From positions 3,410,001 through 3,474,000 of the forward strand of contig NZ_CP028487.1 in assembly GCF_003048255.1 (NCBI RefSeq): DNA of 64,000 bases, in the 5' to 3' direction. This document shows positions 16,496 through 19,852 of this stretch, in pieces. This stretch comes from Yersinia massiliensis (GTDB lineage: Bacteria; Pseudomonadota; Gammaproteobacteria; Enterobacterales; Enterobacteriaceae). The notes below the pieces were generated by a model. That model was not told where the DNA came from. It searched no databases and saw nothing but the letters and a program-made list of their open reading frames with translations. Position numbers and translations under genes: made by a program. Each line of letters starts with the position of its first letter. Within the stretch, counting starts at the first letter, position 1.

Positions 16496-17908
16496 ATGAA
16501 TTCTATGGGAACGCCACTCTGCATTGATCTTGATGGCACATTGGTTAGAACTGATACGCTCGTTGAGTCATTCTTTCTTCTGATTAAGAAAAATCCATTC
16601 TATGCATTCCTGTGCGTGTTATGGCTGCTTCGCGGCAAAGCTGCGCTTAAAAACGAGATAGCTAAGCGTGTAACAATGAATGCATCATCACTGCCTTATA
16701 ACGAAAGTTTACTCGCTATGCTTCATAATGAGCATAGAAATGGCAGGGAAATATGGCTGTGTACTGCCGCAAATGAGAAGATTGCGCAATCAGTATCAGA
16801 CCATATTGGTATATTCTCGAAAGTAATTTCGAGTAATAACACTAAAAATGTCTCATCTTCAGTTAAAGCAGATGAAATTTTATCTCATACCGATTCGTTT
16901 GATTATGCGGGGAACTCATCTGACGATATTAAGGTGTGGGATAAGTCAACAGGCGCTATCGTTGTTGACCTTCCAAAGAAATTAATGAATAAAGTATCAG
17001 TACCAATTTTGTATCAATTTGATAGTGATAAAAAAACTATAAAAGCATGGCTAAAGGAAATAAGAATTCATCAGTGGGCAAAAAACATACTGATTTTTAT
17101 TCCAATATTGGCTGCGCATGAGATAAGTAAAACATCACTACTATTAGATTCAATGCTTGCTTTCATTGCATTTGGGTTTTGTGCATCAAGCGTTTATCTA
17201 CTTAATGACCTCGTAGACTTAGAAGCAGATAGAGAGCATAAAACAAAGAGAAACAGACCACTGGCGTCAGGGGCAATACCATTAATACATGGAATTATTG
17301 CTGCTGTTATATTGTTTATATTAGCCATAATAATCACATTATATCTCCCAATACAGTTCGCCTTTGCATTGGCTTCATATTACGTTATCACTCTGGCATA
17401 CTCTTTTTCCCTTAAAAGCAAGGTTGTCATTGATGTCGCAACATTGGCAATTTTGTACTCAATGCGCCTTGTCGCTGGGGCGGCCGCTACGGGAATTATG
17501 TTGTCAAACTGGCTTATTTCTTTTTCAATGTTTATTTTCTTCAGCCTGGCTATCGTGAAAAGAGTTGTCGAACTTAAATCCTCTGAGTCTAATGCCAAGA
17601 TAAAGGGTCGTGGATATTATCCAGCGGACATGCCTCTATTATTAGCGTCAGGGATCTCTTCAGGGTACATCTCAATCCTTGTCTTTGTTCTATATATAGA
17701 TAGCTCAGCAGGCTTGCAGAACTACAACAACCCTGATGTTTTATATTTCATAGCGCCAATCCTTTTCGTTTGGCTTACCCGCGTGTGGTTGCTTACGTGG
17801 CGCGGTGACATGTATGATGATCCTGTAGCATTTGCAATAAAAGATAGGACTAGTCAATTAATGGGGATCGTAATAGCAGTATTAATTATTTTAGCTGCGG
17901 GGGTTTAA
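16496..17908 (+). CDS. HAD phosphatase-UbiA fusion, predicted polyprenyl-phosphate phosphoribosyltransferase/phosphatase
   Basis: 470 residues. Residues 1-180 are a HAD hydrolase with intact motifs: DLDGT (Asp11, Asp13), LCTAA near 88-92, and GNSSDD near 139-144. From about 190 a UbiA membrane domain follows with NDLVDLEAD (237-245), KRNRPLASG and YSFSLKSKVVIDVA, then about nine spans. The motif set resembles mycobacterial decaprenyl-phosphate phosphoribosyltransferase (Rv3806c), including a C-terminal DDPVAFAIKDR. I infer PRPP-dependent phosphoribosylation of a polyprenyl phosphate, with the HAD domain removing the 5-phosphate. Codon use is AT-rich compared with the host. It is first in a three-gene operon whose next ATG overlaps its stop. 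Confidence 0.75.
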   Translation: MNSMGTPLCIDLDGTLVRTDTLVESFFLLIKKNPFYAFLCVLWLLRGKAALKNEIAKRVTMNASSLPYNESLLAMLHNEHRNGREIWLCTAANEKIAQSVSDHIGIFSKVISSNNTKNVSSSVKADEILSHTDSFDYAGNSSDDIKVWDKSTGAIVVDLPKKLMNKVSVPILYQFDSDKKTIKAWLKEIRIHQWAKNILIFIPILAAHEISKTSLLLDSMLAFIAFGFCASSVYLLNDLVDLEADREHKTKRNRPLASGAIPLIHGIIAAVILFILAIIITLYLPIQFAFALASYYVITLAYSFSLKSKVVIDVATLAILYSMRLVAGAAATGIMLSNWLISFSMFIFFSLAIVKRVVELKSSESNAKIKGRGYYPADMPLLLASGISSGYISILVFVLYIDSSAGLQNYNNPDVLYFIAPILFVWLTRVWLLTWRGDMYDDPVAFAIKDRTSQLMGIVIAVLIILAAGV

Positions 17909-18246
17909 TGATTCAGTTTGGATATGTTTGCCTATTCTTCAGTGCGTTGTGTAGCGCCATCGCCAGCATTCTGCTGAAGTATCCAGATAGACTTGGGATA
18001 TTGGCTATTTCTACAAACCCCATACTTATAAAACTACCAGCCATAATTTTTTATGGCGCTGGATTTGTTCTTTACAGTCTTGGATTGAAAGATATCGATG
18101 TTTCAAAGGCATATCCTGTGATGGTTTCATTTGCCATTTTACAGGTATTAGCGTTTGGTTTGTTTTTCGGTGAATCAATAACGATAAAAATGATTATTGG
18201 CACCGCATTTGTGATTGTTGGAATACTACTAATAAGTGCTAAATAG
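17908..18246 (+). CDS. SMR/EamA-type small membrane protein, predicted lipid-linked sugar flippase
   Basis: 112 residues with four hydrophobic spans and the small-multidrug-resistance pattern near the end (SKAYPVMVSFAILQVLAFGLF, then a final IGTAFVIVGILLI span). It resembles the ArnE/ArnF and GtrA-like small flippase partners rather than a drug pump, given its neighbours. It starts at the stop of the UbiA fusion (TAATG). In gtr operons the equivalent protein moves undecaprenyl-phosphate-glucose across the inner membrane; here the cargo would be the product of the upstream enzyme. Confidence 0.65.
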   Translation: MIQFGYVCLFFSALCSAIASILLKYPDRLGILAISTNPILIKLPAIIFYGAGFVLYSLGLKDIDVSKAYPVMVSFAILQVLAFGLFFGESITIKMIIGTAFVIVGILLISAK

Positions 18247-18247
18247 G

Positions 18248-19852
18248 ATGACGTACATGATTAGGTCAATTGGTTTGAAAATATTATTCTTTGTAGCATC
18301 ATTTTTCGCTTTATATCACGTTGCAACAGAGCCAACACCACCAATTCGGGGCGATGGCAGAGAATATATTTTGATGAGCCAGTCACTACTAAATCACGGC
18401 ACATCAAACCTAGAGCAGCAAGATGCTAGAGATGTTGTAGATTCATTCAAGTCAAAATCACAGTCATTTAATGATCCGGTATTAAACTGTGATGCGCACA
18501 ATGATTGTGGTGTTTCTATCTTTTTCGAACGCGCCTACTTTCCAAACAATAACGGTAAATTATTTTCATACCACTTCTCATTCTATCCTCTGGTAAATGT
18601 CCCAGCGCTAATTATTACCAAGTTAATTTCAGAATCACCAACAACTGCGTTTTATTTAACAAACACTTTATTCTTTATAATAGCCATTTATTTTTTACTA
18701 TTTTTTATTAAAGAGAGGTTGCTATATAAAACTATTATAATATTCCTTTTTGCATCTCAGACAACAATATCTTATCTAAAATGGCCGCATCCAGAAGTAA
18801 TAACCATTTCAATGATTGTGATTGCATTGTGTGTGTTTAAGCGGAAAATGTTTTATGCGTCTTCTCTTATCTTTGCATTTGCCTCACTTCAATATCAGCC
18901 GCTTGGAATAATAGCTGCATTACTATTGTTGTATGCCTTTATATCAGGACTCAAACAGCTAGATATTCGCTCAATTAAAGGGCTTATAGAAAACAAAAAA
19001 TTCGCAGTTAAAACTGTAATTTATGCCTTAATTTCTGGATTTGTCGTTTTAACTCCATCTCTATTCTATTTTTATAATTTCTCATCTCCAAACCTCATAG
19101 CATCTATCGGTGGAGCGAGATCTGAACTAGTGTCATTTTCAAGATTTATTTCAATGTATTATGATTTAAATCAGGGGGCCATACTTCTATATCCTATAGT
19201 GTTAATTTTTTCACCAATTATCTTTATAATATCAATAATAAAAATAAAAGAAGAGCATTCAAGAAATATCATTATTTTTACGCTTATTTCAGTAATTTCT
19301 GCAATACCTTGCTTGACAACGGCAAATTGGAATTCAGGCGCTGAAAACGTGATGAGGTATGCGTTTTGGGTTTCATCCCCTCTGATATTTTCTTTCACAG
19401 AATTTGTCTTCAACATAAAAAGTAAGATCACAAAATCTGTAATATTGCTAATTACGTTCGCGAGTCAGATTGCGTTCATTACGATGCAAAATAACGGGAA
19501 GTTCTTTTCTATAAATCACGTCTCTCCGTCTTATGTTGGGCTTGCATTCTATAATCATTACCCTTCACTGTATAACCCAGAAGCGGAGATATACGTTGAA
19601 AGAGCGCTGAATACAGAGCTTTCACTTGTGGGTGTACTAAATGGTAATAGCTATCCAGGATATGTAAAAAGAGGCAACCTGAGAAAATTAATAGCGCCAG
19701 CGAATATGGATCTGACGCTATTAAATCCATGCCCTTCCGTGACACCTTCAATTACTGACGCATCTGATGGCTATGTTTACTATAACTACCCATTAGGATG
19801 CAAAGTGGCTGATGAGACAAAGACTGCCGTAGTAATGTTCTCACCCAAATAA
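18248..19852 (+). CDS. GT-C type polytopic glycosyltransferase, predicted O-antigen-modifying
   Basis: 534 residues from ATG 18248 (a GTG at 18236 and an ATG at 18257 are alternatives; the latter has the better-spaced AGGA). There are about ten membrane spans. The first periplasmic loop carries GDGREYILMSQSLLNHG, the acidic motif site typical of GT-C enzymes using polyprenyl-linked donors, and the C-terminal 100 residues form a soluble periplasmic domain. No family name is recognised. Its position after a flippase matches the serotype-specific third gene of gtr operons. It is very AT-rich and converges on the tailspike gene. Confidence 0.6.
   Translation: MTYMIRSIGLKILFFVASFFALYHVATEPTPPIRGDGREYILMSQSLLNHGTSNLEQQDARDVVDSFKSKSQSFNDPVLNCDAHNDCGVSIFFERAYFPNNNGKLFSYHFSFYPLVNVPALIITKLISESPTTAFYLTNTLFFIIAIYFLLFFIKERLLYKTIIIFLFASQTTISYLKWPHPEVITISMIVIALCVFKRKMFYASSLIFAFASLQYQPLGIIAALLLLYAFISGLKQLDIRSIKGLIENKKFAVKTVIYALISGFVVLTPSLFYFYNFSSPNLIASIGGARSELVSFSRFISMYYDLNQGAILLYPIVLIFSPIIFIISIIKIKEEHSRNIIIFTLISVISAIPCLTTANWNSGAENVMRYAFWVSSPLIFSFTEFVFNIKSKITKSVILLITFASQIAFITMQNNGKFFSINHVSPSYVGLAFYNHYPSLYNPEAEIYVERALNTELSLVGVLNGNSYPGYVKRGNLRKLIAPANMDLTLLNPCPSVTPSITDASDGYVYYNYPLGCKVADETKTAVVMFSPK

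What the first reader, a model, noticed from the sequence alone, without database searches (positions are those of the whole stretch)
16496..19852. Phage-borne cassette predicted to decorate surface glycan with ribofuranose via a HAD-UbiA fusion, flippase and GT-C
The layout (lipid-sugar synthase, small flippase, serotype-specific polytopic transferase, at the att end beside the tailspike) is that of gtr seroconversion operons. The GtrB position is instead filled by a UbiA enzyme with decaprenyl-phosphate phosphoribosyltransferase motifs (NDLVDLEAD, YSFSLKSKVVID, DDPVAFAIKDR) fused to a HAD phosphatase with intact catalytic motifs. That predicts polyprenyl-phosphate phosphoribose made from PRPP and dephosphorylated by the same polypeptide. 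No DprE1/DprE2-type epimerase is present, so ribofuranose rather than arabinofuranose is the expected donor. I know no described phage seroconversion of this chemistry.
Basis: partly seen in the sequence, partly recalled or inferred. Interest (0 to 1): 0.88.

Follow-up and report, generated by a model that had tools for sequence, protein, structure and literature searches.

The report
Prophage genes for ribose-decorated surface glycan
A dormant virus in a Yersinia genome carries three genes that very probably make a lipid-linked ribose, flip it across the membrane and attach it to the bacterium's surface sugar coat; the chemistry was worked out in Citrobacter in 2024, and here it sits in the exchangeable slot that such viruses use to alter their host's surface.

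Summary
In detail: three plus-strand genes at 16496-19852 lie between attL and a convergent tailspike of an apparently complete short-tailed prophage (16224-63024) inserted at the start of rsfS in a Yersinia genome. The first protein keeps all seven tested residues of Citrobacter ORF15, a proven polyprenyl-phosphate ribose synthase with a HAD phosphatase; its UbiA half is closest to the mycobacterial enzyme in sequence and fold. The second is an ArnE/F- or EmrE-like small transporter. The third has a GT-C fold and all eight tested residues of Citrobacter ORF12, founder of family GT136. No DprE1/E2 or ORF13-type epimerase is in the cassette, and no DprE1 was found in the genome, so ribofuranose is expected. 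The novelty claim needs correction: Kelly et al. 2024 established this pathway and mention one predicted phage example. New here: a delimited prophage; a GT136-like enzyme without the carbohydrate-binding domain; a GT-C that has diverged far more than its partners; a decayed Erwinia prophage that kept the cassette; a sibling prophage with an acyltransferase in the same slot. Donor chemistry is very likely; O-antigen as acceptor is likely but untested.

The parts
16224..63024 (.). Prophage inserted at the start of rsfS (host nadD to the left, rsfS to the right)
   Evidence: 28-nt repeat at both ends; the site is single-copy in 23 of 25 Yersinia genomes and doubled in the own genome and G021; capsid, packaging, tail, lysis, replication, repressor and integrase genes
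16224..16251 (+). attL
   Evidence: left flank matches the empty site of other Yersinia genomes
16313..16347 (+). Four GACAT repeats at exact 10-bp spacing, possible integrase arm sites (inference)
16458..16470 (+). Conserved upstream block GGTGCTAAACTCC, possible promoter element (inference)
   Evidence: identical in window, Y. thracica and E. typographi; the sigma-70 scan found no excess of sites over shuffles and none here
16496..17908 (+). HAD-UbiA fusion, predicted polyprenyl-phosphate phosphoribose synthase plus 5'-phosphatase
17908..18246 (+). Four-helix SMR/EamA (ArnE/ArnF-like) protein, predicted flippase of undecaprenyl-phosphate-ribofuranose
   Evidence: 37% over 52 aa to the ORF14 homologue
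18236..19852 (+). GT136-like GT-C transferase without the C-terminal carbohydrate-binding domain (start GTG 18236 or ATG 18257)
   Evidence: profile match to the Cu233 ORF12 homologue E 1.9e-58; 8 of 8 residues tested in ORF12 conserved; GT-C fold
19864..21954 (-). Tailspike-like protein, convergent with the cassette
   Evidence: tail PHROGs; 36% over residues 192-695 to Erwinia phage AH03 tailspike
61855..62931 (+). Tyrosine integrase
   Evidence: phrog_7244 E 4.1e-74
62997..63024 (+). attR, overlapping the TTG start of rsfS at 63006

Best explanation
A lysogenic-conversion cassette: a phage-borne form of the three-component pentofuranose system of Citrobacter youngae O1. [quoted passage not shown] Step 2 (inferred, weakest by sequence): the 112-aa protein flips undecaprenyl-phosphate-ribofuranose to the periplasm. 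Step 3 (inferred): the GT136-like GT-C transfers the ribofuranose, probably alpha-linked, to a polymerised periplasmic glycan, most likely the lysogen's O-antigen. Step 4 (inferred, least certain): the altered glycan changes serotype and lowers adsorption of phages with this or a similar tailspike. None of the steps is shown for these genes. My odds: step 1 0.9, steps 2 and 3 with ribofuranose 0.8, O-antigen as acceptor 0.65 to 0.7, exclusion of kin phages 0.5.
Against: No expression, lipid or LPS data. The flippase resemblance is weak and below the curated cut-offs of its best models. The DPPRS models are also below their curated cut-offs (176 of 207); only the fusion family is above. The GT-C model is of moderate confidence (pLDDT 73), and residues 32-34 and 36-38, which hold the predicted catalytic Asp-Glu-Tyr, are below pLDDT 50; Foldseek alone gave no match under 1e-3. 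In two of eight GT-C relatives one tested residue (H174 of ORF12, not needed there) is Ser. The host O-antigen locus encodes an SDR 28-30% identical to the ORF13 epimerase. The swap pattern is less sharp against Erwinia (HAD-UbiA 76%, flippase 87%, GT-C 63%). The sibling's acyltransferase gene lies on the opposite strand relative to att.
Confidence: 0.65

Rival explanations
1. Same machinery and same acceptor class, but the sugar added is xylofuranose or arabinofuranose because a host epimerase acts on the lipid-linked ribose.
For: An SDR in the host O-antigen locus is 28% identical over 268 aa to the Cu233 ORF13 homologue (30%); twelve generic SDR matches to DprE2; Kelly et al. found ORF12 uses Rib and Xyl donors alike.
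Against: Nothing above a generic SDR level: that host SDR scores about as well to other SDR models and lies in the host locus, so the phage would depend on it. No DprE1 in the genome. None of the three cassettes (window, Y. thracica, E. typographi) has a DprE1, DprE2 or ORF13 neighbour (for the two relatives, for the window).
Confidence: 0.1
2. The donor is undecaprenyl-phosphate-ribofuranose, but the acceptor is not the O-antigen: lipid A-core, enterobacterial common antigen, a capsule, another exopolysaccharide or a surface protein.
For: The acceptor is untested. GT-C enzymes and HAD-UbiA enzymes serve other glycans and, in Pseudomonas, pilin (Kelly et al.).
Against: The only characterised GT136 enzyme acts on O-antigen; the slot is filled by an acyltransferase with O-antigen-acetylase-like relatives in a sibling prophage; the host has an O-antigen-type locus by hemH.
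Confidence: 0.19
3. A silent or decaying cassette with no present effect on the host.
For: Expression is not shown; the promoter scan found 14 sites against a mean of 18.4 in shuffles.
Against: All three frames are open, all tested residues are kept, an upstream block is conserved in three lineages, and in Erwinia the cassette outlived the rest of the prophage.
Confidence: 0.05
4. An ordinary UbiA prenyltransferase (quinone, heme or archaeal-lipid type) fused to a phosphatase, with unrelated neighbours.
For: Weak Pfam-level match to UbiA in general, 81 bits; a generic prenyltransferase model scores 48 bits.
Against: NF006088 614 bits and DPPRS models 128-176 bits; 8j8j best by sequence and by fold; the genome already has three other UbiA-family genes with better PF01040 scores, as expected of the housekeeping enzymes.
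Confidence: 0.01

Closest known systems
Citrobacter youngae O1/O2 three-component pentofuranose system (ORF15, ORF14, ORF12, with or without ORF13; Kelly et al. 2024, PMC11127046)
   Same: HAD-UbiA synthase (43% identical to the Cu233 homologue), small four-helix flippase (32%), GT-C with all eight tested residues (28%); no functional epimerase needed for ribofuranose
   Different: Carried by a prophage at attL instead of in the O-antigen locus; GT-C lacks the C-terminal carbohydrate-binding domain; gene order synthase-flippase-GT-C on one strand
gtrABC seroconversion operons of Salmonella and Shigella phages
   Same: Lipid-sugar synthase, small flippase and polytopic specific transferase, att-proximal and beside the tailspike; partners better conserved than the transferase in one comparison
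   Different: No GtrA (PF04138) or GtrB-type GT2 domain in the three proteins; donor predicted from PRPP, not UDP-glucose
Decaprenyl-phosphate arabinose pathway of mycobacteria and HAD-UbiA loci with DprE1/E2 in other Gram-negatives
   Same: DPPRS-type first enzyme; HAD-UbiA proteins 40-53% identical at most of the 80 loci
   Different: No DprE1/E2; 61 of 80 HAD-UbiA loci carry DprE1 within 6 kb, and only 4 of 80 carry a GT136-like transferase
O-acetyltransferase (AT3 or AT3-SGNH) lysogenic conversion genes
   Same: Fill the same slot between attL and tailspike in the G021 prophage
   Different: One-gene acylation, different chemistry, opposite strand

Membership tests
Polyprenyl-phosphate phosphoribose synthase (ORF15/DPPRS kind) | UbiA fold closest to DPPRS among solved structures | tested here: met
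Polyprenyl-phosphate phosphoribose synthase (ORF15/DPPRS kind) | Residues N247, D248, D251, D255, R366, E369 (UbiA part) and D18 (HAD part) of ORF15 | tested here: met
   7 of 7, using Citrobacter sp. Cu233 as stand-in, whose residues sit at the paper's numbers
Polyprenyl-phosphate phosphoribose synthase (ORF15/DPPRS kind) | Score above the curated cut-off of a DPPRS NCBIfam model | tested here: not met
   Best 176 bits, cut-off 207; the HAD-UbiA fusion family NF006088 is passed, 614 of 351. The proven ORF15 homologue was not run against these models, so the weight of this miss is unknown
Polyprenyl-phosphate phosphoribose synthase (ORF15/DPPRS kind) | PRPP-dependent ribosylation of a polyprenyl phosphate | not testable with these tools
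   needs a biochemical assay
GT136 | Sequence relation to ORF12 | tested here: met
   Profile of 13 sequences (own included) against the Cu233 ORF12 homologue, E 1.9e-58; 24-28% identity. Formal CAZy assignment not testable here
GT136 | Residues D31, E34, Y35, H106, H174, E176, R349, Y350 of ORF12 | tested here: met
   8 of 8
GT136 | GT-C fold | tested here: met
GT136 | C-terminal carbohydrate-binding domain | tested here: not met
   531 aa against 651 aa in Cu233; the paper found the domain dispensable for activity, so it is not taken as a defining feature
Three-component pentofuranose system | Small four-helix flippase gene beside synthase and GT-C | tested here: met
   EamA/SMR protein, 37% over 52 aa to the ORF14 homologue; flipping itself not testable
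Three-component pentofuranose system | Pentofuranose on a surface glycan | not testable with these tools
   needs NMR of the lysogen's polysaccharide
gtrABC seroconversion operon | GtrA (PF04138) and GtrB-type GT2 proteins | tested here: not met
   Neither domain in the three cassette proteins at E <= 1
gtrABC seroconversion operon | att-proximal place in a temperate phage | tested here: met
   attL at 16224-16251, cassette from 16496
gtrABC seroconversion operon | Change of serotype on lysogeny | not testable with these tools
   needs lysogen and cured strain
Decaprenyl-phosphate arabinose pathway | DprE1 and DprE2 | tested here: not met
   None in the cassette; in the own genome the DprE1 query finds one match of 95 aa at 28% in a 1032-aa frame, the DprE2 query twelve generic SDRs at 33% or less

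The most novel reading that the evidence does not exclude
The first well-delimited temperate phage that converts its host by ribofuranosylating O-antigen from PRPP, using a compact GT136 subfamily without the carbohydrate-binding domain whose members are exchanged as specificity modules, in an att-proximal slot where whole chemistries (ribofuranosylation, O-acylation) replace one another between related prophages at rsfS.
Probability: 0.6. Interest if true: 0.65.

Novelty: new variant of a known kind. Interest (0 to 1): 0.55.

Why it matters
Phage serotype conversion is best known as glucosylation and O-acetylation (recalled). A phage that carries the PRPP-to-ribofuranose route would show that seroconversion can bring in the donor chemistry itself and not only a new linkage. 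It gives a small, concrete test case for the phage-mediated seroconversion that Kelly et al. only suggested, extends GT136 to a compact subfamily, and offers an enzyme set for installing ribofuranose on polysaccharides. It also shows that genes named UbiA family prenyltransferase, or even 4-hydroxybenzoate polyprenyltransferase as in several listed relatives, can be lipid-ribose synthases.

Tried and rejected
Considered and rejected: quinone, heme or archaeal-lipid prenyltransferase (profile scores and fold); arabinofuranose (no DprE1); classical gtrABC (no GtrA or GtrB domain). Xylofuranose is judged unlikely, not excluded.

Led nowhere: relatives in IMG/VR, with the single proteins and with the alignments: 6, 1, 29 and 122 stretches matched a pattern and none encoded a relative; these scans reach close relatives or conserved patterns only. 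INPHARED: for the GT-C none; for HAD-UbiA one record, MT837543.1, a 6.6-kb unverified fecal scaffold, 28.5% over the UbiA part; its long ORFs look to me like a bacterial polysaccharide locus (UbiA, separate HAD, small transporter, SDR, polytopic proteins) and my GT136 profile found nothing in it. I cannot say whether this is the phage meant by Kelly et al. PHROGs: no family for HAD-UbiA or GT-C. E. coli genomes: no megablast match to window 16000-24000. PDB by sequence with the GT-C profile: none. Foldseek with the GT-C model: best E 3.7e-3, ALG12 and ArnT first. DNA of 36377-39834 (portal and large terminase genes): no INPHARED match. Integrase: 9 of 394 Enterobacterales genomes at E <= 1e-60, own included; apart from the own copy the best is 50% identical, and no rsfS was found in the stretches I read around the others. 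Phase variation: two GATC sites upstream of the cassette, not judged meaningful. Papers: no Yersinia O-antigen with ribofuranose and no seroconverting Yersinia prophage surfaced (4 listed papers each, judged from titles and abstract starts). Foldseek on the HAD-UbiA model could not be run; only VIA-align was. The GtrA-like locus fetched as L112 was not analysed.
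Full report
WHAT IS THERE. The window is a stretch of a Yersinia chromosome. The genus is inferred: the HAD-UbiA relatives at 84-98% identity that carry an organism name are all Yersinia, and Y. thracica has it at 92%. The species is not settled. Host genes run from leuS to nadD, which ends at 16017, and rsfS starts at 63006 (gene names recalled from E. 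coli). Between them lies a prophage bounded by a 28-nt repeat, 16224-16251 and 62997-63024, 26 of 28 identical. The right copy overlaps the TTG start of rsfS. The core of the site (17 nt, up to one mismatch) occurs in 25 of 25 Yersinia genomes: once in 23, twice in the own genome and in G021. In nine forward-oriented loci of other Yersinia genomes nadD and the site are 207-419 nt apart, so the site is empty there (the script did not measure the reverse-oriented loci). The prophage has terminase genes, a portal-type head-tail adaptor, major head protein, internal virion and tail proteins, tailspike, lysis genes, replication genes, repressor, exonuclease and integrase. It looks complete and, I infer, short-tailed.

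THE CASSETTE. Three plus-strand ORFs at 16496-19852, GC 36.8% against 47.4% for the prophage to the right of the tailspike, between attL and the convergent tailspike at 19864-21954. In the circular phage this puts them across attP from int, the arrangement I recall for P22-type gtr operons.

PROTEIN 2. 112 aa, EamA/SMR; nearest models ArnF (36.5 of 99 bits), EbrB and ArnE; EmrE weakly in the PDB (E 0.008). It matches the Cu233 ORF14 homologue at 37% over 52 aa. The paper calls ORF14 a MATE transporter but describes a four-helix protein similar to EmrE and ArnE, so I take the two for the same sort of protein. The paper shows no flipping either.

WHICH SUGAR. In the paper ORF13 makes xylofuranose, DprE1/E2 homologues accompany arabinofuranose, and without them ribofuranose is added. 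The cassette has none. The own genome has three FAD_binding_4 matches, in frames of 1032, 349 and 574 aa; a DprE1 query (from Pseudomonas nitroreducens, L046) finds only 95 aa at 28% in the first, a DprE2 query twelve generic SDRs at 33% or less. Among 80 HAD-UbiA loci (the best 80 of 376; some contigs are short, so misses may be cut off) DprE1 lies within 6 kb in 61, DprE2 in 49, an ORF13-like gene in 11, and a GT136-like gene is found in 4: Y. thracica, Erwinia typographi and two Citrobacter (the query loci count themselves). Against: a host O-antigen-locus SDR is 28% identical to ORF13 over 268 aa, and ORF12 uses both donors, so xylofuranose is not excluded.

WHICH ACCEPTOR. Untested. The clues: (a) The slot. 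Genome G021 has a prophage at the same rsfS site, 40.4 kb between the repeats. DNA from just before its integrase through rsfS and beyond is 92.5% identical to the window over 2375 nt, and its attL side 88% over 223 nt. Between its attL and its P22-type tailspike (Head_binding domain) lies one AT3-SGNH acyltransferase gene, on the strand opposite to the window's cassette. Of the ten phage relatives listed, 31-32% identical, seven are annotated O-antigen acetylase and one O-polysaccharide acetyltransferase. (b) Divergence. Against Y. thracica, HAD-UbiA is 92% and the flippase 74% identical, the GT-C 43%; the DNA match of 85.8% runs from 16433 to 18235 and stops at the GT-C. This resembles the conserved gtrA/gtrB and serotype-specific gtr(type) pattern (PMC3259042, abstract start seen in a listing). 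Against Erwinia the contrast is weaker: 76, 87 and 63%. The Y. thracica cassette, beside a gene I read by eye as tgt, is followed at the contig end by a tailspike-like C-terminus (phrog_14558, E 6.5e-7). (c) Retention. In E. typographi the cassette lies between nadD and rsfS with only an integrase fragment (98 aa, 32%, E 3.7e-13) before rsfS: I read this as a decayed prophage that kept the cassette. (d) The host has a short locus beside hemH with Wzz, GalE, GT4, SDR, a protein without family, GT2 and a weakly Wzx-like protein, consistent with a Wzx/Wzy O-antigen.

DISTRIBUTION. HAD-UbiA at E <= 1e-60 is in 14 of 394 Enterobacterales genomes, own included, the others at 38-44% identity; close copies are in 2 of 25 Yersinia genomes, own included. 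Named sources at 84-98% identity are Y. massiliensis, frederiksenii, enterocolitica, thracica, vastinensis, intermedia and unnamed Yersinia. On plasmids 103 records match, all below 60% identity. Patchy, as expected of a mobile trait.

NOVELTY. The pathway, the fusion enzyme and GT136 are published, and the paper mentions one Caudoviricetes example that could facilitate seroconversion. My searches surfaced no paper that tests such a case; the library holds open-licence papers only and I judged the listings by title and abstract start.

Noticed in passing
L141 and L142 (G021:C1:3277500-3321000): A second Yersinia prophage at the rsfS site with a near-identical integrase region, P22-type tailspike and an AT3-SGNH acyltransferase in the slot next to attL.
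   Followed up: partly
L014:13356-14140 (Erwinia typographi): Integrase fragment before rsfS and the cassette kept without the rest of a prophage.
   Followed up: partly
L077:13421-15381 (Citrobacter youngae CCUG 30791): The GT136-like gene appears as two pieces in different frames; described only.
   Followed up: no
P0130-P0133: Relatives of the GT-C with about 100-140 extra C-terminal residues, perhaps a carbohydrate-binding domain lost in the window's version.
   Followed up: no
window 53265-53343: tRNA-Ser(CGA) gene inside the prophage.
   Followed up: no
window 50364-50457 and 53920-54193: Exact direct repeats of 28 nt (in the replication O-like gene, perhaps origin iterons) and 39 nt.
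   Followed up: no
window 16313-16347: Four GACAT motifs at exact 10-bp spacing near attL, perhaps integrase arm sites.
   Followed up: no
L113 (MT837543.1): A record filed as Bacteriophage sp. whose 6.6 kb look to me like a bacterial polysaccharide locus with separate UbiA and HAD genes.
   Followed up: partly
G000:C1:4441467-4441799: One GtrA-family protein elsewhere in the genome, perhaps part of a second glycan-modification system; region fetched but not analysed.
   Followed up: no
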